Origin: Paludibacteraceae bacterium
GTDB lineage: Bacteria; Bacteroidota; Bacteroidia; Bacteroidales; Paludibacteraceae
Direction of reading: 5' to 3'
Assembly: GCA_017446455.1 (NCBI GenBank)
Contig: JAFSQV010000004.1
Location: forward strand, 1 to 33,975
DNA: 33,975 bases
Part shown: positions 9,442 through 29,899 of the stretch, in pieces
How the letters are laid out: each line of letters opens with the position of its first letter
How positions within the stretch are numbered: position 1 is the stretch's first letter
Translations under genes and position numbers: made by a program
Notes under the pieces: model-generated
What the model was told of the DNA's origin: nothing
The model's database searches: none
What the model saw: only the letters and a program-made list of their open reading frames with translations

Positions 9442-10501
9442 AACACCTCGAATCCTAGGATTCCTAGGGTGCCTAGGTCTCCTATCGTCTTGTTCCCCGC
9501 GGGTAGCGACGTCGTTCTGGCGCATCGGAACGCCGGCGGATTCTACCCGCGCGGGCTACACTGTCATTCACGCCGAAGGAAAAACGCGGCACTGCTATCC
9601 TACTACGGAATGGACGGATTCGATTCAACCCAATTACGTAGGTAAAGGAGACACCTACCATCAGCTGCATCATCACGGTGTAGCCGTAGAGTCGGAGCAC
9701 ATGGCCTATCGTATTTATTTCGACAAGAAGCAAACCATCGACCCCTATTGCAAGCGCACGCCGCAACTCGAGCTCGCACAAAGTCACTGGTATCCTAACG
9801 ACAGCCTTCTCGCCGCAGGCTACGGCGATGACATTCTTCGCGTCTCGGGCACTGTAGGCGTCGGTTCTGTCAAATACTGGAACGGCCAAAAGATGGTGCA
9901 TATCGAACCCATCAATGAACGCTCCCAGCGCATCGTCTCGCAGTCCCATAATAAAGCGACCATAGAGGTCGCCGTAAAAGGATGGGAAATACCACTTAAT
10001 AACTATCCACTAAACGACTTCTCTCAACACTCAACACTCAACACTCAACTACTGGACATGTCTGTCCAATACACTCTTTGTGCTAGCCATCGTGACATGC
10101 GATGCGACGTGACCCTCAGCGAAGCGGTGGAAGGTCTCTGTACCGGTGTGCAGACCATCCCTGCCAAAGGCGGCAAAGATACCGCAACGATTATTCTGCC
10201 TAACGGTGTATTGTTGGCAAGTTGGGGCACAGACTGGCCGGTGAACGACTCTGCCAAATACGCGAAAGAGACCGTCGGTCTCGCCGTCTTCATCCCCAAA
10301 TCCTATGCCGGCGCCCTCGTTCATGACAAGCAGAACAACCTGTGTCTTTTACGCACAAACAAAGAAACAAAAAAAGACACAAGCTATACCGCACATTTCT
10401 ATCTTACTTGTGTCGGTGCCACAAAAGAAAACCACCCCGTGGCAAGGACTGCCGCGGAGTGGTTCGCTTATCTTCGCCGCTGGGCGAAACATCTTCGCTA
10501 A
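9425..10501 (+). CDS. DUF4861-family lipoprotein, pectin-utilisation associated
   Basis: 358 residues. The signal peptide ends in the lipobox LSSC (residues ~20-23). The core carries HMAYRIYFDKKQTIDPYCKR, WYPNDSLLAAGYGDDILRVSG and VGVGSVKYWNG, which I recognise as the DUF4861 pattern. The family has no settled reaction; co-occurrence with pectinases suggests a role in pectic oligosaccharide handling. The gene overlaps the GH28 gene by 17 nt. Two repeat features shape the protein: CCTAGG nonamers encode the hydrophobic core of the signal peptide, and heptamers (10024-10050) encode a low-complexity segment (SQHSTLNTQ, ~200-208) that looks inserted between family-like sequence. Its stop codon abuts the stop of the 41-residue gene on the other strand. 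Confidence 0.8.
   Translation: MFTLTKTPRILGFLGCLGLLSSCSPRVATSFWRIGTPADSTRAGYTVIHAEGKTRHCYPTTEWTDSIQPNYVGKGDTYHQLHHHGVAVESEHMAYRIYFDKKQTIDPYCKRTPQLELAQSHWYPNDSLLAAGYGDDILRVSGTVGVGSVKYWNGQKMVHIEPINERSQRIVSQSHNKATIEVAVKGWEIPLNNYPLNDFSQHSTLNTQLLDMSVQYTLCASHRDMRCDVTLSEAVEGLCTGVQTIPAKGGKDTATIILPNGVLLASWGTDWPVNDSAKYAKETVGLAVFIPKSYAGALVHDKQNNLCLLRTNKETKKDTSYTAHFYLTCVGATKENHPVARTAAEWFAYLRRWAKHLR
9451..9477 (+). repeat. In-frame nonamer repeat, three CCTAGG palindromes 9 nt apart
   Basis: Units AATCCTAGG, ATTCCTAGG and GTGCCTAGG (CCTAGG at 9454, 9463 and 9472), followed by the degenerate TCTCCTATC. They encode I-L-G, F-L-G, C-L-G in the hydrophobic part of the DUF4861 lipoprotein signal. Because the unit is 9 nt, copy changes keep the frame and only lengthen or shorten the signal. 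Confidence 0.8.
10024..10050 (+). repeat. Heptamer tandem repeat (TCAACAC)x3 inside the DUF4861 coding sequence
   Basis: TCAACAC at 10024, 10031 and 10038, then a partial TCAACT. Degenerate heptamers may extend upstream to about 9993 (phrases such as CCACTAA and CTCTCAA fall in the same 7-nt register). One unit gained or lost would shift the frame of the gene. Confidence 0.8.
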
Positions 10502-10627
10502 TTAGAATACAGCATCCCGACGCGGAGGAGCACCTACAGGTGTCATCTTACTTTCTGCCAATGCTATTGGCATATTGCAGGTCAACTGCACAATTTCCAC
10601 TGTCGGTATGTAATACGTTTTTCTCAT
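10502..10627 (-). CDS. Small 41-residue hypothetical protein, Bacteroidales MK/RKTY-type
   Basis: Reading leftward from the ATG at 10627-10625 to the TAA at 10504-10502 gives 41 residues: MRKTYYIPTVEIVQ, then LTCNMPIALAESKM, then TPVGAPPRRDAVF. Many Bacteroidales genomes carry short genes that begin M(K/R)KTY..P..E.V; this resemblance is from memory. No signal peptide is evident. A perfect TTTG-N20-TACCTTTG promoter ends 10 nt upstream of the ATG, so the mRNA would have almost no leader. The stop abuts the DUF4861 stop with no bases between, so there is no room for a terminator between these convergent genes. It lies 47 nt after the giant gene and could also be transcribed from it. It is below usual gene-calling length. 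Function unknown. Confidence 0.65.
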   Translation of the reverse strand: MRKTYYIPTVEIVQLTCNMPIALAESKMTPVGAPPRRDAVF

Positions 10628-10636
10628 TTGCGGCCG

Positions 10637-10668
10637 CAAAGGTACTGCTTTTTTTTCAATTGTGCAAA
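10637..10668 (-). promoter_or_regulatory. Bacteroidetes-type promoter of the 41-aa gene
   Basis: On the minus strand: TTTG (10668-10665), exactly 20 nt, then TACCTTTG (10644-10637), a full match to the Bacteroides primary-sigma consensus TTTG / TAnnTTTG. Transcription would start about 10628-10632, next to the ATG at 10627. A 14-nt palindrome, TTTGCGGCCGCAAA (10627-10640), overlaps the -7 box and the expected start point. Confidence 0.75.
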
Positions 10669-19637: not shown

Positions 19638-21716
19638 TTAACGACTTACCACAACACCCAACACGTTGTATATCAAGCCGTTCTTTATCACAAACAACCG
19701 GCCGTCCTTTATGAATTTACGACTCTCCGTGCCATCGCCCACTTTCTCCAGATCGGTGGTGATAGCCGGCGCATCATTACGCTCCGTAATATAGAAACGA
19801 TCTCTAATCTCACTATTCGGTTCAGCAAAGAACGTATATTGCATACCTTCCTCGATCGCTATCGTCTCCTGGGCCTGAGCGTCGTACAACGACCACTCCG
19901 TCTCTCCGCTCAACGCCCCGAACGTCAAGGTATAAGCTGTCTCTTCACCTGTACGCACGCCTATCTTCGTTCCGGCAATATGATTCGTTGCATCTACTGC
20001 CAAAGCTTCTTCGCCTTCAAGCGTGAAGATATTTAAGTTACCCTGCATCAGTTTATGCGCATCGTAACCGTTCTCGAACGCCGCGTCGTACTCTTCAGCC
20101 TCTAACAAGTACACCTGATCTCTCCATCCATCCGCTTCTACCATTACGCACAGGCTACCCTTCTGTTGCTCCTCAGCGCGTTTAGCGCGTAAAGGCGTAT
20201 TACTATGCGTCGCATTCCAAACTAAGCGCTCGTAGTTCAATGTCAGCGTACTACCTGCACTATTTGCCTTCACATAGAATCCCTGCATAGCAGGAATAAC
20301 CGCAGGCAACAGAAAACCGTCCTTCACTGTTCCCGCCAAATGAATAGGAATAGCGATAAACTGACCGGCAGCATTACCATCAAACTCCGTTAACGCCGTC
20401 ACATCATTCTTCGAACCGGTATTGAACAGATAAATCGTTGCATCAACACCCGTAGAGAAATCGGTGTCCACAAACTTCGTAATATCTATCGGAGCGGTGT
20501 AACTATTGGCCAGCACATTGATGCCCGGCTCTGCGGAAGTAGGCGTATAGGACAAATTTAATACCTGATCGCCATTAGACGCTAATTGGCCCTTATGCTC
20601 AATCAGGATTCCTGCAGGATCCATATACTGCGAAGTACAATATCCCACAAACGGCTCTAAGGTCAAGGTCTTACGTTTATTCTTCCATTCACCGGAGTCT
20701 TCGAACCAACTATAGACCCAACTATTGGGGAAAATGGTCTTTGCTGCCGTGCCGGCTACCATCGGCGAACCCACATACTGATACGAACCCACATTATTAC
20801 GGTCGTCAGCCGTCATGTCGAAATACGCTTTCGAATACATCTCTGCCGTAGCGCTCGGCATCGTCGTACAACTCGGATCAATCAGCAGCACACCTGATTG
20901 ACCTTGGTTGGTACCCGCCGTTGCGGCCTGCAACTTAAAGTTCTCCGTGGTCGCATTTTTTACTCCACCATCTCCGACCTTCAGTGTACCCGTCGGTGCA
21001 ACTGTCACTTTATTCGTTCCCTCAATCGTCACGCTCTTGGCAGTTGCATTTCCTGTAATAACCGCATCATGACGAATAAACACGGAATCGTTAATGGTCG
21101 GCAATGCATTCGGCAACCAGTTATCCGCTTGCTCCCATTTCAAATGATCACTTTCTGACCCGCTACCATTGCCTTTGAAGATAAACTTCGGTATAAGAGT
21201 ATAAGTAATCGTAATATAATTGACCGCGACCGTGGACCAAGTGCCGGCTTTTTCGAAAACAATAGGAACGGATTCAAAAGTCGTATATACTTTGGAACCC
21301 GAAGATAAATTCGCCGTAATCATCCAATGCACATCTCCGGTGCGCGAGCCATCACCAACGGTGATATAAGAGCCTATACCGGAAGCTTTGTTGACATTAA
21401 TCGTTACTTTGGAAACAGCGAGATTATAATCCGCATCTACGCTCCATGACAAAGTAAACGTAGCGCCGGTATTCTGAGGAACAAGACCTACCGGGCCACT
21501 CGCCATGTATAAATTTCCCAAGGTGGAATAGATTGCTTTATTCGTTCCCACAAGAGTAAACGTCACCTTATGATCTTCTGCATCCCACGAAACGGAATGA
21601 CTCGTTTCGTTAAAACTGCTAACCAGTGTTGACTGATTTATTGTTGATGTAGAAGCGCTCAGTGGTATAGCCCATACTCCTAAAAGGAGCATCCATATAT
21701 ATCGAATTTTAAGCAT
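19638..21716 (-). CDS. Secreted adhesin-like protein, paralogous to the giant protein's C-terminal half, with the shared tail
   Basis: 692 residues. Signal peptide ~1-21 (YIWMLLLGVWAIPLSAS). Residues ~25-180 are a beta-rich domain with repeated T/S strands. From ~185 comes the module FKGNGSGSESDHLKWEQADNW (in key features: W..A.NW....LPT..D.V.I), then AKSVTIEGTNKVTV and LKVGDGG, equivalent to the NWTTNLVPDENADITV / AANVKSITIE region of the giant protein (~1944). Next is a segment containing YQYVGSPM and a C-terminal domain. The last ~40 residues (DLEKV...KFIKDGRLFVIKNGLIYN..G) match the tail shared by five products here, so type IX-like secretion is likely. It has its own consensus promoter, and the Cys-rich gene follows 7 nt later. 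No enzymatic motif; surface adhesin likely. Confidence 0.82.
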   Translation of the reverse strand: MLKIRYIWMLLLGVWAIPLSASTSTINQSTLVSSFNETSHSVSWDAEDHKVTFTLVGTNKAIYSTLGNLYMASGPVGLVPQNTGATFTLSWSVDADYNLAVSKVTINVNKASGIGSYITVGDGSRTGDVHWMITANLSSGSKVYTTFESVPIVFEKAGTWSTVAVNYITITYTLIPKFIFKGNGSGSESDHLKWEQADNWLPNALPTINDSVFIRHDAVITGNATAKSVTIEGTNKVTVAPTGTLKVGDGGVKNATTENFKLQAATAGTNQGQSGVLLIDPSCTTMPSATAEMYSKAYFDMTADDRNNVGSYQYVGSPMVAGTAAKTIFPNSWVYSWFEDSGEWKNKRKTLTLEPFVGYCTSQYMDPAGILIEHKGQLASNGDQVLNLSYTPTSAEPGINVLANSYTAPIDITKFVDTDFSTGVDATIYLFNTGSKNDVTALTEFDGNAAGQFIAIPIHLAGTVKDGFLLPAVIPAMQGFYVKANSAGSTLTLNYERLVWNATHSNTPLRAKRAEEQQKGSLCVMVEADGWRDQVYLLEAEEYDAAFENGYDAHKLMQGNLNIFTLEGEEALAVDATNHIAGTKIGVRTGEETAYTLTFGALSGETEWSLYDAQAQETIAIEEGMQYTFFAEPNSEIRDRFYITERNDAPAITTDLEKVGDGTESRKFIKDGRLFVIKNGLIYNVLGVVVSR

Positions 21717-21873: not shown

Positions 21874-22155
21874 TTATTCTATCACTCCTGCTTCGCGCCA
21901 AGAAGCGATAGTAGCCTCTACGTCACTCATCGCTTGTTCCGGCGAAACTTCGTATTCCGCACAGAGCGCTTTGCATAGTTCCACAGCCGTAAACTCGCCT
22001 TGAGAAACGCTCTTTTCTTCTGCTTCTTTCCAAAGGAAAGCGGCCGTCTCATTGAGCGTAATCATCTTATTAAAATTGATGAGCGCCATCGACTCGCCTA
22101 CCAGAATAAATTCATTGCCTAACTTGCGCAATTTAAAACCTTCAATTGTCTTCAT
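21874..22155 (-). CDS. PqqD-family protein (RiPP-recognition-element-like fold)
   Basis: 93 residues from the ATG at 22155. That start places the beginning 8 nt after the S26 peptidase stop; longer in-frame extensions run back into the peptidase gene. The sequence shows the PqqD pattern: a beta-rich N-terminus (FKLRKLGNEFILVGES), then INFNKMITLNETAAFLWKEA and a C-terminal winged helix (LCKALCAEYEVSPEQAMSDVEATIASWREAGVIE in outline: L...L...Y.V....A..DV......W...G.I). PqqD proteins bind leader peptides of ribosomally made natural products, but many Bacteroidales copies stand alone with unknown targets. It is the last gene of the M6/secreted/S26/PqqD operon; no radical-SAM or cyclase gene is nearby. 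Confidence 0.85.
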   Translation of the reverse strand: MKTIEGFKLRKLGNEFILVGESMALINFNKMITLNETAAFLWKEAEEKSVSQGEFTAVELCKALCAEYEVSPEQAMSDVEATIASWREAGVIE

Positions 22156-22163
22156 AATGATTC

Positions 22164-22634
22164 TTATTTTTCGGTATCCCTGTATAACGGAACAACGGTA
22201 TGACGATAAATTTTTAATAAAAAACCTCGAATTGGCAGCAGTGCATGCCAGAGTCTCCCTCGCGTAAGCAGTTTGGCTCGTCCCTTCGGAGTTTCTATCC
22301 GCCGAACTCGACCGATAACATCCGATCTTCGGCATGTTTCTTCGCCTTGCAAATTGCCGTCTCCCTGTAACACAAGGAGTTCTCCGTGCTCGTCGTGCGC
22401 TATTCGCACGAGTCGGTGCAGCACGTAGGTCGTCTGTCCACCGGGCTGCGTAGCACCTACAAGGAGTATATCTCCGCGCCGCGGAGAACGAGTAAGCGGA
22501 GCCAAAATCACACTGTCGTGATTCCCCTCTATGAACGGCCGCATACTATTGCCGGAAGGGGTAAAACGCACCTCTTTCTCTTCGGCTAATAATCGCGCCA
22601 ATTCCGGAACTAATATCTCGTTCGCTATCTTCAT
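22164..22634 (-). CDS. S26-family signal-peptidase-like serine protease (S24/S26 fold)
   Basis: 156 residues. PSGNSMRPFI holds the presumed nucleophile Ser30, RRGDILLVG (~52-60) is the next conserved strand, YVLHRLVRI places His73 where bacterial SPase I has its general-base lysine, and LQGDGN (Asp92) matches the C-terminal GD box. Ser/His/Asp is the SipW/SEC11 (S26B) arrangement rather than the Ser/Lys type. There is no N-terminal membrane anchor; a hydrophobic patch near the C-terminus (LWHALLPIRGFLLKIY) may associate with membrane. Its ATG directly follows the stop of the 174-residue secreted gene and PqqD follows after 8 nt. Substrate unknown; processing of a co-encoded secreted protein or peptide is the obvious guess. 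Confidence 0.85.
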   Translation of the reverse strand: MKIANEILVPELARLLAEEKEVRFTPSGNSMRPFIEGNHDSVILAPLTRSPRRGDILLVGATQPGGQTTYVLHRLVRIAHDEHGELLVLQGDGNLQGEETCRRSDVIGRVRRIETPKGRAKLLTRGRLWHALLPIRGFLLKIYRHTVVPLYRDTEK

Positions 22635-23159
22635 TTATTCGCTTACTACCCGCAAACAATGGCAAGGACTATAGGCATAGTGAAAACTCAAAAATTTGAT
22701 AGCACTCCCGCTGTTTTCTATCTTAAGATAGTAGTTACCCTTCGCGGGCATAGGAGCGTTAATCGCATAGGCGACAAACATGTCTGAAGAAGTGATATCG
22801 GTCCACGTGCTATTATCCGTGGAAATTAAGATCCGCACGCCGGTCAGTTTAGATGCCACATTATGCGTCACATTAAGGTGCGTCATATTCTCCACGGCCG
22901 GAGAAGTCTGCACAACGCCTCCCCCTGCCGGTAAGGCGATACAATACGCTGCCTCGTTTAATCCAAAACTTCCTCCGTCAGAACAGGTATAGGTAATCTG
23001 ATCGGTAACACCTACCGTATAATCACTACTGGCCCGATAAGGGAACGTCAACGTACCTCCCCTTGCCATATCGTCAAAATTGTGCGTAAAACTCTCAGCC
23101 CTGCAATACGCAGCGCTGAGAGTGCACATACTTAACAATACAATTGCTATCTTTTTCAT
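22635..23159 (-). CDS. Small secreted beta-rich protein in the M6/S26/PqqD operon
   Basis: 174 residues with a signal peptide (KKIAIVLLSMCTLSAAYCRA, cleavage near residue 21). The mature part is rich in S, T, N and aromatic residues and looks like a beta-sandwich or carbohydrate-binding module (FTHNFDDMARGGTLTFPY, GVRILISTDNSTWTDI, YYLKIENSGSAIKFLSFHY). It ends abruptly in PCHCLRVVSE and lacks the shared C-terminal tail carried by other secreted proteins here; the final CxC might be a modification, metal-binding or disulfide site. Start and stop abut the neighbours with zero spacing (TAAATG on both sides), so it is translated in step with the protease upstream and the signal-peptidase-like gene downstream. 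Family not recognised. Confidence 0.8.
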   Translation of the reverse strand: MKKIAIVLLSMCTLSAAYCRAESFTHNFDDMARGGTLTFPYRASSDYTVGVTDQITYTCSDGGSFGLNEAAYCIALPAGGGVVQTSPAVENMTHLNVTHNVASKLTGVRILISTDNSTWTDITSSDMFVAYAINAPMPAKGNYYLKIENSGSAIKFLSFHYAYSPCHCLRVVSE

Positions 23160-25472
23160 TTATCGGATACGCTCACCGGTGATGGTGAATTCTTCGTCAC
23201 CGCGGATGATCACAATACGACCTTCGCGGATCACTTTGACTGCCGCCGGTTTTGCGATCTCAATGTCCTCGATACCTTGTCCGCCGCAACCGCTAACCGC
23301 ACTGTAGTCGGTCAACTTAGCACCGGCTCCGCCTCCGATCTCCAGGTCGAAGTACTCGGTACCATTGATATTGCTGGTCGAATAAGCGCCGAATACGTTG
23401 TATGTGCCCGCGCGGAACGCAAGTGCACGACCGGTATTGGTAGTCGAGTTAACGCGCCAGGAACCTTGCGTGCCGGCCTCGATAGCCCAAGTGTATGCCG
23501 TGTTAGCCAGACTTACGTTGGTCTTTGAGCCATTGGAAAGGTATTTACCGCCTGTCTGGATGGTGAATCCGCCGGTGACAGGAGTCAATACAAATTCAGC
23601 AGCTTCTGCTTCGCTGGTCGTAGGTTGCACCTTATTGGCGCTGCTTACCGAACTGGTAGCATAATACTTCGTTCCGTTCACATTCGCGTAGATCTTGAAC
23701 GTTCCGCCGGTAACGCCGTCAAAAGCTGCCTCACCGCTTCCACTTGTTTGGGTAGCAAAGATCGCATAGAACTTAGCGCCTTCTTCTACGTCATCACCTG
23801 CTTTGACTAACTTCGGAGCGACAGCCTCGCTCTCATAACTTGCGTTCGCGCACCATCCGATGAATACGCGATCGCCGCAAGCCGTAGGCTCATCACTCGG
23901 CAAAACAACCTTTCCTAAGTCCGTACATTGATTGGTCTCAAAGAGTTTTCCATCCGAGAACCATTGCACATCGAACGGCTCGATAGGCTCTACCGGTTCT
24001 TCAATATATACCAGCGTGATATTACTTCCGCTTTTCTTGATATCCTTCAGCGGTTTGCCGCTTACGCCATCCCATGAGTTCTTCAGCGACGAACCGCTAC
24101 CGTACGGCCATACGTTCTTTGTGCCATAGCTGGCACCTATTTTTGTGCCATTCGGAATTTCCAAAGTATATCTGGGGTTTCCTGATGTATTATTCGGCGT
24201 ATTGCTCGACCAAGCAGAAGAGCTGAAGTTCACCTTCCAAATCAGCATACCCGCTGCAGGAATATCGATGTCCCATCCTTTCTTTTGACGACACTCGATA
24301 TAATAGTTCAGTCCATTCGTAGTAGCCGTCTGCTGTTTGCCGGAAGCATTGATTTGATAGGTATTGTAATTTTCTGTTCCGTTCGGATAGAGTGTCAGAA
24401 CGGCGCCTTCATTGCCTAAGTTAACCGGTGTTGCCCAGCCGAAGAAATATTTCTCCCATGCACTGTAGTTAGGCGGGCAGTGACCGTCTCCATTATATGC
24501 GCCGCCATCCATAACGTCCCAATCGTTGGGGGTTACTTCATTATTGTAGTTATCTCCATACTTCGTATCATAGAAATCCGGCAAGCCCATTACGTGACCA
24601 AACTCATGGCAGAGCGTACCAATACCGCCGAGGGTGTTACCGGACAACTCACTCGACATCGCGTAGTTATCAATCTTCTTGCCGCCCAACGTGCGCTGCG
24701 CATTCGTGTACGTGCAGTATCCATAACTGATAGCAGAGCTTACATCCCAGTTATGCGGCCAGATAGTGGTAGAAGCACCGCCGTCTGCCTGACCCTTACC
24801 GGCATAGATCACATATACGAAATCGACCTTGCCATCGTTGTTCGAGTCATAATCTGCCCAGTTAATAGTAAATTGCTGATTGGCGAGAATACAAGCTTCT
24901 ACTACAGCGTCGGTAGCATGCTGGTCGTCGCCCTCTTCGCTACCGTCCGTTCCATAATACGACACATTGCGGCTAAGCGTCACCGGACCGAACACATCAA
25001 ACACCGGGTGGTATGCGCCGCTACTCTGGTCCGCAAAATACTGTGCTGCAGAGGGATAACCGCTATTGACCGTACAATTGTCCGAGTTACAAAGCTCATC
25101 GAAGGTAGCCTGCGTATGGCCGGATTTCATTTGGCTGTCTTTGAAGTTCGCCAAGATAACAACACCCTTCGGCGCCAAGTTCGGCTCTACACCTATATCT
25201 TTGCGTTGACGGCGAGCAGCCGCTTGAGCATGAAGCGCTTTCGCTTTTGCGGGCGTCGGAGCGTCGCCAACCACTTGGAATTGACCATTGATCTCACGCA
25301 CTTGTTTTCCTTCGCGGTTGATGGTGTAGTGATAGAACTCATCACCAATCACCTGCACCTCGATTGTAGTACCATCGGCTTGCGTGCGGGTTTGCCATCC
25401 GCGTCTCGCCGGCACTGCATAGGCCATCATCGCGATGACACATACAATGATTAAAGATACGATTTTTTTCAT
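23160..25472 (-). CDS. Secreted M6-family metalloprotease with InlB-type repeat and shared C-terminal tail
   Basis: 770 residues. Signal peptide ~1-19 (VSLIIVCVIAMMAYA). Residues ~20-95 are the propeptide (PARRG, later GDEFYHYTINREG). The catalytic domain starts near NLAPKGVVILANFKD. It contains [20 protein letters not shown] and the zinc site HEFGHVMGLPD (His289, Glu290, His293, Asp299), with WDVMDGG as the Met-turn, all typical of M6 (immune-inhibitor-A-like) peptidases. After ~500 follow an InlB/Listeria-Bacteroides-like repeat (FIGWCANASYE, KFYAIFAT), a ricin-like or Ig-like domain, and the tail GIEDIEIAKPA...VKVIREGRIVIIRG. First gene of a four-gene operon with its own promoter. A second M6 protease is encoded at 28292-29899. 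Confidence 0.9.
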   Translation of the reverse strand: MKKIVSLIIVCVIAMMAYAVPARRGWQTRTQADGTTIEVQVIGDEFYHYTINREGKQVREINGQFQVVGDAPTPAKAKALHAQAAARRQRKDIGVEPNLAPKGVVILANFKDSQMKSGHTQATFDELCNSDNCTVNSGYPSAAQYFADQSSGAYHPVFDVFGPVTLSRNVSYYGTDGSEEGDDQHATDAVVEACILANQQFTINWADYDSNNDGKVDFVYVIYAGKGQADGGASTTIWPHNWDVSSAISYGYCTYTNAQRTLGGKKIDNYAMSSELSGNTLGGIGTLCHEFGHVMGLPDFYDTKYGDNYNNEVTPNDWDVMDGGAYNGDGHCPPNYSAWEKYFFGWATPVNLGNEGAVLTLYPNGTENYNTYQINASGKQQTATTNGLNYYIECRQKKGWDIDIPAAGMLIWKVNFSSSAWSSNTPNNTSGNPRYTLEIPNGTKIGASYGTKNVWPYGSGSSLKNSWDGVSGKPLKDIKKSGSNITLVYIEEPVEPIEPFDVQWFSDGKLFETNQCTDLGKVVLPSDEPTACGDRVFIGWCANASYESEAVAPKLVKAGDDVEEGAKFYAIFATQTSGSGEAAFDGVTGGTFKIYANVNGTKYYATSSVSSANKVQPTTSEAEAAEFVLTPVTGGFTIQTGGKYLSNGSKTNVSLANTAYTWAIEAGTQGSWRVNSTTNTGRALAFRAGTYNVFGAYSTSNINGTEYFDLEIGGGAGAKLTDYSAVSGCGGQGIEDIEIAKPAAVKVIREGRIVIIRGDEEFTITGERIR

Positions 25473-25563: not shown

Positions 25564-25595
25564 CAAAGTTACGGCTTTTTTGGCACATACGCAAA
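25564..25595 (-). promoter_or_regulatory. Bacteroidetes-type promoter of the M6/secreted/S26/PqqD operon
   Basis: Minus strand: TTTG (25595-25592), exactly 20 nt, TAACTTTG (25571-25564). Full consensus match, ~85 nt before the ATG at 25472. Confidence 0.8.
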
Positions 25596-25764
25596 TTTTT
25601 TGACCGAAAAATGCAATATGCGTGTATTTTTTGACGAAACTTGTGTAAATTTGTTTTTTATCTCCTTTTAACCATAGCGTATGTGCGCGAGGTTTTGTAT
25701 CTTTGCCCTCGCTATTGCATATAACACAAAAACTATACCAATTTTTATTAACCAAAAATTTAAA

Positions 25765-26052
25765 TCTATTAACGGCGTGGTAAACACCGAGGTTGGTACG
25801 CTTAATACCACAAAAGTGGTGTCTGCCGCTATCGAAGTTCCTGCCGGAAAAGTAGTTCTTCAAGGAGCATTCGAGGACGGAACAACACAGTATTTGCGTG
25901 TTTACAAACTTACGTTTGCCACCGAGAAACCCGATCCGCAAGGCATAGAGGATCTTGAGGCTTCGGAGCAGGCTGTGAAATTCATCCAAGACGGACAGAT
26001 TTTGATCCGCCGCGGAGAGAAAATCTTCACCGTAACCGGTCAAGAGAAGTAA
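25765..26052 (+). pseudogene. Headless C-terminal fragment of a secreted protein with the shared tail
   Basis: An open frame gives VSAAIEVPAGKVVLQGAF, YLRVYKLTFATEKPDPQ and then the shared tail GIEDLEASEQAVKFIQDGQ..IRRG...FTVTG, ending in TAA with a terminator 30 nt later. No signal peptide or convincing start exists: upstream is AT-rich leader-like sequence, and a lone -7-like box TATCTTTG (25698-25705) has no -33 partner at the right distance. The in-frame GTG at 25777 would yield a non-secreted 91-residue product. The simplest reading is that a deletion fused an old promoter and leader to the last ~90 codons of a secreted protein. Alternatively it could be a tail reservoir for recombination. 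Confidence is good that it derives from such a gene, lower that it is dead. Confidence 0.65.
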
Positions 26053-27912: not shown

Positions 27913-28272
27913 ATGAAAAAGATTCTCTTATTGGTAGCCATGATGGCTACAATGGTTTTGGGCGCGCAGGCTCAAGAAGCAGAGGCCGCTCCGCGCCACA
28001 ACGTACCGGCTTACCGCGGACTGATTGTTCGCGACCTGCCGAACGGATACCAGTTGCGTACCTACCTGCGCGGTGATGAACACTTCCATTGGTCGATGAC
28101 CGAAGACGGATGGCAGATCATCGAGACCTCCAAAGGATGGTTCAAATACGCCAAACTGAATCGCAAAGGACAGGTCGTTTCGCACTGGCGCAAAGCGCAT
28201 AATGCGGAAGACCGCGGCCGTTGCGAGAAGAAATGGTTAGAGAAGCACGGAATAAAAAAAGTAGTTGCATAA
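27913..28272 (+). CDS. Stand-alone secreted protein resembling an M6-protease propeptide
   Basis: 119 residues with a signal peptide (KKILLLVAMMATMVLGAQA, cleavage near residue 20). The mature part contains PAYRGLIVRDLPNG, then TYLRGDEHFHW and DGWQIIET. This matches the propeptides of both M6 proteases in the window: [14 protein letters not shown]...[11 protein letters not shown] in the next gene and PARRG...GDEFYHY in the 23160-25472 protein. No protease domain, zinc motif or shared tail follows; it ends in a basic helix-like tail (KKWLEKHGIKKVVA). It lies 5 nt after mlaF and 19 nt before the second M6 protease. Known stand-alone propeptide homologues act as protease inhibitors or folding helpers; such a role here is inference. 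Confidence 0.8.
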   Translation: MKKILLLVAMMATMVLGAQAQEAEAAPRHNVPAYRGLIVRDLPNGYQLRTYLRGDEHFHWSMTEDGWQIIETSKGWFKYAKLNRKGQVVSHWRKAHNAEDRGRCEKKWLEKHGIKKVVA

Positions 28273-28291
28273 CTACATAATAATAGGTATT

Positions 28292-29899
28292 ATGAAAAAG
28301 TTTATTAGTCTGATGAGTTGTTTGGTCCTCGCCGGGATGGTGATGGCTAAACCCGCGTACCGCGGTCCGATCGTTCAGGTCGCCGAAGACGGTACGGAAA
28401 AAACAGTGTATCTGCATGGTGATGAGCATTTCAGCTATATGACCGATGAATCCGGTGTATGGTTGGACGAGACGACGCTCAAACCGATGACATCCGCGCA
28501 GAAAGAGTTCCGCATGGCGCAGAAAGCCAAAGCACGCCGTGCGCCGCAAGCTACCGAAGCTACCCAAGCCGGAGGCGCACCGAACCTCGCGCCGCATGGA
28601 CTGGTGATCTTGGCGAACTTCCAAGATAAGACCTTCGGTACCGATAAGGCCACGATGGACTCCATGCTGACCGGTATGAATTTCACGCGTAACTATTCGT
28701 ACAAGAAGAAAGAGGGCGGCGAGACAGTCACCATCAGGATCAAGAGTAAAGGCAGTGCACGGCAGTATTTCTACGACCAGAGTTATGGTCAGTACAATCC
28801 CACCTTTGATGTGATTGGTCCGGTGACGGTTAGTCAGAACTTTGCCTATTACGGCGAGCCGGTGAAAGATGCGCAAGGGAATGTCACCGCGCACGATAAG
28901 AATCCGCGCGAACTGATCAAAGAGGCATGTCAGTTAGCCGACGAAGCAGGAGTGGATTTCTCCCAATACGACAATGACCACGACGGATATGTGGACTTCG
29001 TGTACGTCATCTATGCCGGCTACGGCGAAGCGGATGGCGGCGGCGCGAACACGATCTGGCCGCACCAATGGAGTATGGCGCCCTTGGCTATTAAGATTGA
29101 TAACAAACTGCTCGGCCGATATGCCTGCGGATGCGAGTTGAATAACATCAGTAAGGTATACGACGGTATCGGTACCTTCTGCCATGAGTTCAGCCACGTA
29201 TTGGGTCTGCCGGACTTCTATGTAACGGCTGATATGGACAACCCGCCTCATACTTTGTGCGACTGGTCCATCATGGATTACGGTCCATACAACAACGATG
29301 GTAACACCCCACCCGCTTACTCGGCATACGAGCGCTTCTACATGGGTTGGTTGACGCCGCGTCTGTTGGTGGACCAGGAGAAAGTGACGTTGCATAACAT
29401 CAACGAAGGCGAAGGAGAGTCGCTCCTCATCTCGGAGAATAACCAATTGCCGTCGAGCGGTTGGAATCCCCTCCCGAGGATATTCTACACGCTGGAGGCA
29501 CGCGTTAAAAAAGGCTGGGACGAGTTCCTGCCCGGCGAAGGCATGCTCATCACCAGAATCTCGTACAACCAGGCAAAATGGCAGGGCAACTCGGTGAACA
29601 ACGATCCGAACAACATGGGTGTGGATATTCTGGAGGCAACGACGAACTACACCAAGAAAGGTCTCGCTACGGATGCTTTCCCCGAAGGGGCAACAGAATG
29701 GACACTTGTGGAGGACCATGAGATCACAGGAATCACGCGCAATTTGCGTAGCGGATCGGTGATCTTCTACTATCGTGGAAACCCGCAGGGTATCGAAGAT
29801 ATCGAGGACGGCAAAGCCGCGCAGAAAATTCTGCGCGACGGTAAAGTAGTGATCCTTCGCGGAGGTGTAGAGTATGACCTCAACGGACGTAAATTATGA
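28292..29899 (+). CDS. Secreted M6-family metalloprotease with shared C-terminal tail
   Basis: 535 residues from the ATG at 28292, which opens a clear signal peptide ([18 protein letters not shown]); codons further upstream do not. Propeptide ~20-85 ([15 protein letters not shown]). Catalytic domain from [15 protein letters not shown], with [20 protein letters not shown] and the zinc site [11 protein letters not shown] (His298, Glu299, His302, Asp308), then WSIMDYG as the Met-turn. The tail [29 protein letters not shown] ends the protein. It is shorter than the other M6 protease because it lacks the InlB-like and following domain. It overlaps xth by 4 nt (ATGA). Probably cell-surface or secreted, degrading host or dietary protein or processing surface proteins. 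Confidence 0.9.

What the first reader, a model, noticed from the sequence alone, without database searches (positions are those of the whole stretch)
22163..25472. Zero-spacing operon M6 protease - small secreted protein - S26B-like peptidase - PqqD
Seen: the first three genes abut exactly (TAAATG twice) and PqqD follows 8 nt after the peptidase, all under one perfect promoter. Known: PqqD-like domains bind leader peptides, and S26 proteases cut signal or leader sequences. Inferred: this could be a compact maturation and export system in which the 174-residue secreted protein (unusual PCHC-containing end, no type IX-style tail), or an unlinked small peptide, is recognised by PqqD and cut by the S26 enzyme. 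No radical-SAM, cyclase or transporter is present, so it does not fit a standard RiPP cluster.
Basis: partly seen in the sequence, partly recalled or inferred. Interest (0 to 1): 0.75.

Follow-up and report, generated by a model that had tools for sequence, protein, structure and literature searches.

The report
Scattered RiPP maturation genes, hidden precursor
Two genes in this gut-type bacterium look like the cutter and the recognition clamp of a peptide-modifying pathway so far described from unrelated Gram-positive bacteria, and a likely target, a 41-residue peptide, is encoded about 11 kb away in the same window.

Summary
In detail: M6 protease, 174-aa protein (P174), S26 peptidase and PqqD lie head to tail behind a Bacteroidetes-type promoter. 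S26-PqqD is best read as leader peptidase and RiPP recognition element of an LPP-like pathway (linear polyphosphorylated peptides, published May 2026, there called restricted to Bacillota). Parts that vary together across this Paludibacteraceae-related genus: S26-PqqD, an HprK-like kinase, an NTP_transf_5 nucleotidyltransferase, and many tiny YxxP peptides, mostly unlinked. One peptide is in the window (10502-10627, minus); seven further hits, some weak, are in this genome. P174 is probably not the standard substrate: no conserved YxxP, and it occurs in a 97%-complete genome where the other parts were not found. Yet it is translationally coupled to S26 and ends in Cx1-2C (55 of 55). An unrelated protein in the same slot of a sister clade ends alike; of 1,265 ORFs screened, only these two families and two apparently spurious ORFs match. 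M6 is a frequent neighbour (34 of 50), not a required part. Chemistry, product and tail function are untested. Verdict: a new variant of a known kind with one unexplained element, the tail.

The parts
22164..22634 (-). S26-type peptidase, 156 aa, probably without membrane anchor; candidate RRE-dependent leader peptidase (LppS-like)
   Evidence: Ser30, His73, Asp92 in 23 of 23 aligned homologues; highest 19-residue mean hydropathy 1.59, under 1.6 in all 23 (a crude measure); AlphaFold pLDDT 90; best Foldseek hits human signal peptidase complex catalytic chains, weak, E 0.003-0.004
21874..22155 (-). PqqD-family discrete RRE, 93 aa; candidate precursor-binding domain (LppB/B1-like)
   Evidence: PF05402 5e-16; best solved relative by sequence TfuB1, 6.6e-5, aligned through the A-x-x-D region; follows S26 in 80 of 80 named loci; only PqqD hit in this genome at E 0.01
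10502..10627 (-). Candidate RiPP precursor, 41 aa: MRKTYYIPTVEIVQLTCNMPIALAESKMTPVGAPPRRDAVF; leader motif YYIPTV (YxxPxV), C-terminal AP.RR..VF
   Evidence: family of 48 distinct peptides; 8 hits in this genome at E 0.1; no Pfam or NCBIfam match at E 1
10637..10668 (-). Promoter-like TTTG-N20-TACCTTTG just upstream of the 41-aa ORF
   Evidence: of 50 rows, 11 have such a site within 220 nt upstream
10431..10447 (-). Weak terminator-like hairpins after the 41-aa ORF
   Evidence: consensus match only; 5 terminator-like sites in the region on both strands, shuffles 0.5
22635..23159 (-). P174: probably secreted jelly-roll protein with a conserved C-terminal Cys tail
   Evidence: AlphaFold pLDDT 90.4 with helix 4-19 and an end without secondary structure; weak jelly-roll hits, among them CBM6/29/32/86 and Eph ligand-binding domains; A6 invariant columns Y57, C166, C168 only; no dedicated signal-peptide predictor was at hand
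22638..22664 (-). C-terminal tail, C166 to E174 (CHCLRVVSE)
   Evidence: Cx(1,2)C tail in 55 of 55 distinct P174; shared with unrelated P270
23160..25472 (-). M6 metalloprotease, 770 aa; first gene of the unit, frequent but not required neighbour
   Evidence: TIGR03296 2e-54; upstream on the same strand within 3.6 kb in 34 of 50 P174 loci
25564..25595 (-). Promoter TTTG-N20-TAACTTTG of the four-gene unit

Best explanation
S26 and PqqD are the leader peptidase and the RiPP recognition element of a dispersed LPP-like RiPP pathway. PqqD binds the N-terminal YxxP leader of roughly 40-60-residue precursor peptides, one of them at 10502-10627 in this window, with seven further hits elsewhere in the genome. 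It presents the leader end to the Ser/His/Asp S26 peptidase, which is probably soluble. An HprK-like kinase encoded on another contig (G000:C67) probably phosphorylates a core Ser, and an NTP_transf_5 nucleotidyltransferase, found in most relatives with S26 but not in this incomplete genome, may extend the modification (a hexose in the pseudomycoidin precedent). P174, made by translational coupling with the peptidase, is a clade-specific, probably secreted partner whose Cx1-2C tail is what ties it to this gene slot; whether that tail is a second substrate, a docking site or an attachment point for the peptide is open. Shown here: gene set, conserved catalytic residues, precursor family, co-variation, gene overlap, tail conservation. 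Inferred from LPP and lasso precedents: binding, cleavage, phosphorylation. Unknown: export, product, function.
For: Same gene set as published LPP clusters (SpI, discrete RRE, HprK-like kinase, NTP transferase, MsbA-like transporter; PMC13381572). LppS triad S29/H68/D93 parallels S30/H73/D92, 23 of 23. PqqD's nearest solved relative by sequence is lasso RRE TfuB1. HprK-S26-PqqD, often with NTase, is a compact cassette elsewhere in the order: in 28 S26 loci with 1.5-kb flanks (27 outside the genus), HprK in 24, PqqD in 20, NTase in 11, with profile models made mostly from this genus. In G055 a 40- to 47-aa peptide with YTSPEI ends 38 nt upstream of HprK. Over 61 same-genus genomes: S26/HprK 41 both, 2, 2, 16 neither, p 1e-10; S26/NTase 38, 5, 2, 16, p 1e-8; S26/precursor 38, 5, 3, 15, p 1.3e-7; HprK/precursor 39, 4, 2, 16, p 3e-9. 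With kinship controlled on one marker gene in 59 of these genomes, S26 and HprK go the same way in 7.4 of 8 independent pairs and never the other way (median p 0.016); S26 and precursor 5.9 same, 0.1 opposite, 2.0 no difference (median p 0.031, range 0.016-0.375). Fifteen genomes, compiled by hand, carry a precursor 6-15 kb downstream of S26 on the same strand (distances). Lasso leader peptidase family PF13471 exceeds its cutoff in 0 of 37 same-genus genomes; one sub-cutoff match, G008.
Against: The LPP leader consensus beyond YxxP (HQxIxFETxxS) is not seen; the genus consensus is YxxPxxE[IV]xx[LVF]. NTase not found in the window's genome (80% complete). No exporter was sought in G000. G067 keeps a precursor hit (9e-5) but lacks S26, HprK and NTase matches; G005, G010, G036, G062, G084 have S26 but no precursor at E 0.1. 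The precursor profile was seeded from flanks of S26 loci, eight of nine seeds by a regex that demands [YW]xxP, so YxxP in 48 of 48 is partly by construction; many of the genome-wide hits are weak (E 0.001-0.1). The profile hits 1 of 40 genomes outside the genus, so it says nothing on precursors there. The kinase is only distantly related to named HprK models (TIGR04352 6e-4 for the G055 protein, none for L057). PqqD was not detected in 8 of 28 S26 loci of the order set. The tree rests on one gene, with 22 of 59 inner branches well supported. No experiment.
Confidence: 0.78

Rival explanations
1. P174 (or P270) is itself a main substrate: PqqD and S26 act on its conserved C-terminal CxC tail, a reversed-polarity system in which the recognition element is a C-terminal follower. 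(Not exclusive of the peptides being substrates too.)
For: Tail in 55 of 55 P174 and at the very end of 5 of 6 distinct P270 (the sixth, L189, has CPGCYLYT followed by an extension); only the tail aligns between the two families (hhalign P 0.0098, probability 4%); 43 of 50 translationally coupled; the end has no secondary structure in the model.
Against: No conserved YxxP. P174 presence needs 2 changes on the tree and does not co-vary with S26. G065, 97% complete, has M6-P174 but no match for S26, HprK, NTase or precursor. P174 seems to have a signal peptide (a hydrophobic stretch of 1.6 or more in 33 of 53; helix 4-19) whereas S26 and PqqD do not. S26-PqqD occurs with neither P174 nor P270 in 24 of 80 named loci.
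Confidence: 0.25
2. Ordinary neighbourhood for P174 and M6: S26-PqqD serves the peptides, and P174 and M6 are surface proteins that merely share the transcript.
For: P174 presence is about one event on the tree; the locus is rich in large surface-type proteins; G065 keeps M6-P174 without the pathway.
Against: Two unrelated proteins occupy the same slot with the same tail, and of 1265 distinct called ORFs of 120 aa or more only P174 (53), P270 (5) and 2 others, apparently spurious, match a regex fitted to P174 tails.
Confidence: 0.4
3. S26 is an accessory signal peptidase for secreted proteins of the locus.
For: Closest solved folds are SEC11-type signal peptidases, also UmuD, SipA and SpsB, all weak.
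Against: No membrane anchor by a crude hydropathy measure in 23 of 23; PqqD next to it in 80 of 80 named loci; co-varies with HprK and precursors.
Confidence: 0.07
4. A lasso-peptide pathway.
For: Shared kinase, nucleotidyltransferase and RRE types (PMC9266682 passages).
Against: Leader peptidase family PF13471 above cutoff in 0 of 37 same-genus genomes. Macrolactam synthetase was not searched for.
Confidence: 0.04

Closest known systems
Linear polyphosphorylated peptides (LPP; LppA/K/B/S/D/N), Popov et al., Nat Commun 2026, PMC13381572 (abstract, passages, sections 6, 8, 9, 11, 12 read)
   Same: SpI-like peptidase with Ser/His/Asp, discrete RRE, HprK-like kinase, NTP transferase, small precursor with YxxPx[V/I]-type leader motif
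   Different: Bacteroidales rather than Bacillota; genes scattered in the window's genome; up to 11 precursor hits per genome; leader consensus after YxxP differs; S26-PqqD coupled to a probably secreted protein with a Cys tail
Paeninodin/pseudomycoidin-type lasso peptides (PMC9266682, passages seen)
   Same: B1-type RRE, HprK-like kinase and nucleotidyltransferase; in pseudomycoidin the kinase phosphorylates the C-terminal Ser and PsmN is linked to hexose addition
   Different: PF13471 leader peptidase above cutoff in 0 of 37 same-genus genomes; S26 peptidase instead
SEC11/SipW-type (S26B) signal peptidases
   Same: fold and Ser-His catalytic pair
   Different: no membrane anchor seen; PqqD beside it in 80 of 80 named loci (detected in 20 of 28 of the wider order set)
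CBM6/29/32/86-like jelly-rolls (for P174)
   Same: fold only, TM-scores about 0.4-0.57; Eph ligand-binding domains score as well
   Different: variable body; conserved C-terminal Cx1-2C tail; ligand unknown

Membership tests
LPP RiPP pathway | archaeal/SipW-type signal-peptidase-like leader peptidase with Ser/His/Asp | tested here: met
   S30/H73/D92 in 23 of 23; sub-cutoff match to TIGR02228 sigpep_I_arch. That it cuts a leader is not shown
LPP RiPP pathway | discrete RRE beside the peptidase | tested here: met
   PF05402; 80 of 80 named loci, 20 of 28 in the order set
LPP RiPP pathway | HprK-like kinase | tested here: met
   in trans in this genome at G000:C67:16106-16972; 43 of 61 same-genus genomes. 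P-loop and HprK/PEPCK-like motifs, weak model scores
LPP RiPP pathway | NTP transferase | tested here: inconclusive
   PF14907-related member in 40 of 61 same-genus genomes, not found in G000, 80% complete
LPP RiPP pathway | MsbA-like exporter | tested here: inconclusive
   ABC protein, best but sub-cutoff match MsbA, in the G055 cassette; not sought in G000
LPP RiPP pathway | short precursor with YxxPx[V/L] leader motif | tested here: met
   window 10502-10627: YYIPTV; 48 distinct peptides
LPP RiPP pathway | full leader consensus YxxPxVLxHQxIxFETxxS | tested here: not met
   genus consensus YxxPxxE[IV]xx[LVF]; only a Ser further on (48 of 48, most often 17-19 after P) is loosely shared
LPP RiPP pathway | genes in one cluster | tested here: not met
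   scattered in G000; clustered in other families and in part of this genus
LPP RiPP pathway | core Ser phosphorylation and RRE-dependent leader cleavage | not testable with these tools
   needs biochemistry
LPP RiPP pathway | RRE falls in the LPP clade | not tested
   LppB and other LPP RRE sequences were not at hand
Lasso peptides | B2 leader peptidase (PF13471) | tested here: not met
   0 of 37 same-genus genomes above cutoff
Lasso peptides | macrolactam synthetase | not tested
   no search made

The most novel reading that the evidence does not exclude
The Cx1-2C[F/L]x[Y/V]xxE tail is a new C-terminal handle through which a dispersed RiPP machinery acts on, or attaches its modified peptides to, secreted carbohydrate-binding-like proteins, so that a RiPP pathway decorates surface proteins rather than releasing a free natural product.
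Probability: 0.25. Interest if true: 0.9.

Novelty: new variant of a known kind. Interest (0 to 1): 0.74.

Why it matters
If right, it extends the signal-peptidase-dependent phosphopeptide RiPPs from Bacillota, to which their discoverers thought them restricted, to the gut order Bacteroidales (a peptidase of this type at E 1e-9 in 48 of 393 order genomes searched). It gives concrete candidate precursors, very short ORFs that cluster-based mining could easily fail to link to their enzymes because the genes are scattered. It also exposes a conserved Cys tail shared by unrelated proteins in one gene slot, a clean testable question about what such a pathway does at the cell surface.

Tried and rejected
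P174 as a YxxP substrate: rejected (4 of 55, scattered; 0 of 5 P270). Tail copies elsewhere in genomes: two DNA-pattern searches (CxCFxYxP; CxxCFxYxP) gave, by my count over the 61 same-genus genomes, 26 matches against 30 for the reversed-pattern control and 20 against 21; loci were given for only part of the hits, and of those that end an ORF of 150 aa or more all are P174. The L-type tail (CxCLRV) was not pattern-searched. HprK context in trans, 5 loci: an addB-like gene upstream in 4 and an mtaB-like gene beside it in 5 (names recalled); that listing shows ORFs of 60 aa or more only, and the short-ORF regex found no convincing precursor in those 5 loci. NTase context: a homologue of a Bac_transf (PF02397) protein directly upstream in 11 of 23 loci; only one of these proteins was scanned against Pfam. 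Lasso pathway. Paper searches: (nine); the only LPP paper listed was PMC13381572. PMC10352776 (passages) mines Bacteroidales RiPPs, and no passage shown was about this gene set. PMC7533575: passages only. The other papers listed were not opened.

Dropped rows and choices: one search lists all motif matches, spurious ones included. A6 uses 53 of the 55 P174 (near-duplicate L156 and the short-start L166 left out); the truncated G031 copy has no end to look at. A7 uses 5 of 6 distinct P270 (L189/L231 left out because of its extended end). A2 uses 23 of the 30 S26 matches, A3 19 of 30 PqqD. Of 16 peptides listed, eight that looked like one family, plus the window's, made A9; the other eight (L031, L140, L172, L210, L214, L227, L338, L340) were left out, two of which (L031 from G055, L340) look like precursors of other families. 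One search uses 48 of 50 rows. The tree has 59 of 61 same-genus genomes (no marker match in G023 and G031) plus 3 outgroups. One change after checking: confidence lowered from 0.80 to 0.78 because PqqD was missed in 8 of 28 order loci.
Full report
What is there. The four genes are as described: M6 23160-25472, P174 22635-23159, S26 22164-22634, PqqD 21874-22155, all minus, with two TAAATG junctions and an 8-nt gap. One of seven TTTG-N19-21-TAnnTTTG sites of the window (0.32 expected) lies upstream of M6, and another after PqqD, in front of the next gene. PqqD and M6 are clear family members; the 156-aa protein reaches only sub-cutoff signal-peptidase-type models.

Who else has it. S26 homologues occur in 28 of 37 same-genus genomes in a first search and in 43 of 61 in a profile search. 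A scan of named genomes kept the best 80 loci, their titles naming uncultured or MAG-derived Bacteroidales and Paludibacteraceae, many from ruminants, some from horses and deer. PqqD follows S26 in 80 of 80. Upstream within 260 nt is P174 in 50; an unrelated protein (P270) is in the same slot in 6; an HprK-like kinase is near the pair in 17; none of these in 7, of which L165 is cut at the contig end. The P174 stop and S26 start are -4 to +10 nt apart in 43 of 50. M6 is upstream in 34 of 50, so it is a companion, not a core part.

The pathway. In part of the genus and in other Bacteroidales families the pair sits in a cassette with a P-loop kinase distantly related to HprK/PEPCK, often a nucleotidyltransferase of PF14907 and, in G055, an MsbA-like ABC protein. 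In the P174 genomes no kinase or nucleotidyltransferase lies near S26 (0 of 50 named loci); where found they are elsewhere. In the window's own genome the kinase is on contig C67, and the nucleotidyltransferase was not found in this 80% complete assembly. Presence of S26 and kinase agrees in 57 of 61 genomes.

Literature. Popov et al. 2026 (PMC13381572; abstract, passages and sections 6, 8, 9, 11, 12 read) describe LPPs in Bacillota: SpI-like peptidase LppS (S29/H68/D93), RRE LppB, HprK-like LppK, NTP transferase LppN, MsbA-like LppD, and a precursor with a YxxPxVLxHQxIxFETxxS leader. LppB presents the precursor to LppS, and LppK phosphorylates a core Ser. They call LPPs restricted to Bacillota. 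The S26 of the window has a matching set of Ser, His and Asp (S30/H73/D92, 23 of 23 rows), no hydropathy window of 1.6 or more (highest 1.59), a model of pLDDT 90 and weak SEC11/UmuD/SipA-like fold hits. PqqD is nearest, among solved structures by sequence, to the lasso RRE TfuB1.

The precursor. A scan for short ORFs with a YxxP motif near the start found peptides in flanks of the loci, and inspection of the window showed one at 10502-10627 (-), MRKTYYIPTVEIVQLTCNMPIALAESKMTPVGAPPRRDAVF, with a promoter-like site of its own. A profile of nine such peptides hits, at E 0.1, 41 of 61 same-genus genomes and 1 of 40 others, with 8 hits in the window's genome (weakest E 0.06) and up to 11 in one genome. 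Of 48 distinct peptides all have YxxP (partly by construction), and in the aligned C-terminal columns A 37 of 47, P 44 of 47, R 30 of 46, V 25 of 43, F 27 of 43; 11 of the 50 rows have a promoter-like site within 220 nt. The profile hits 1 (G067) of the 16 genomes that lack both S26 and kinase (all 16 lack the nucleotidyltransferase too), and 38 of 43 with S26. Fifteen genomes, compiled by hand, carry a copy 6-15 kb downstream of S26 on the same strand. On a one-gene tree of 59 genus genomes the agreement of S26 with kinase and with precursor survives control for kinship (median p 0.016 and 0.031), whereas S26 and P174 do not co-vary.

P174 and its tail. P174 is modelled as a jelly-roll with weak hits to CBMs and to Eph ligand-binding domains; the N-terminal helix and the end are the low-confidence parts. 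Its body is variable (mean majority-residue frequency 0.43 in the body against 0.62 in the last ten positions); the only invariant columns of 53 sequences are Tyr57 and the two tail cysteines. All 55 distinct P174 end in Cx1-2C plus 4-9 residues. P270, found in G068, whose branch is sister to the P174 clade, has a different body, and hhalign aligns only the tail (P 0.0098, probability 4%). Of 1265 distinct called ORFs of 120 aa or more in these loci, 60 match a regex fitted to the P174 tails: 53 P174, 5 P270 and 2 others that look spurious. The tail is thus a real, shared feature of this gene slot. Its function is not known. Against a dependence of P174 on the pathway: G065 (97% complete) has M6-P174 but no match for S26, kinase, nucleotidyltransferase or peptides, G067 has P174 without the first three, and in four loci S26 follows M6 without P174 (L140, L145, L162, L185).

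Judgement. S26-PqqD as an LPP-like leader peptidase and RRE acting on scattered YxxP peptides: about 0.78. P174 as a functional partner through its tail: open. New variant of a known kind.

Noticed in passing
window 27913-28272 (+) and 28265-29899 (+): A 119-aa protein overlaps the start of a second M6 protease and, by eye, resembles the pro-region of that protease (PAYRG..V...GDEHF), perhaps a free-standing M6 propeptide or inhibitor.
   Followed up: no
window 19638-21716 (-), 23160-25472 (-), 25681-26052 (+), 28265-29899 (+): Proteins here end in a shared, by-eye K.I.DGQ..I.RG...Y...G... tail; three of the four were scanned against NCBIfam and gave no sorting-domain hit.
   Followed up: no
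L227-L229, L294, L299, L300, L303-L306, L309: The nucleotidyltransferase gene directly follows a homologue of a Bac_transf (PF02397) sugar-transferase protein in 11 of 23 loci examined, which recalls the hexose-adding PsmN.
   Followed up: partly
L372-L376 (G000 contigs C30, C35, C48, C13): Near-identical precursor copies on several contigs of the same genome, two of them about 500 bases from a contig start, as if duplicated or on repeats.
   Followed up: no
L189 and L231, upstream of S26: One P270 has its CPGCYLYT tail extended by about 20 residues that hold a repeated TPYT stretch.
   Followed up: no
L060 10843-11007 (-), same as L316 2840-3004 (-), G055: Peptide MKKLYTSPEIEVVEVIEYGFAAS... 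directly upstream of the HprK-S26-PqqD-NTase-ABC cassette, spacing like the LPP leader.
   Followed up: partly
G036, G007, G001; G036, G084, G010, G086: S26 matches with an in-frame stop reported, possibly decaying or misassembled copies.
   Followed up: no
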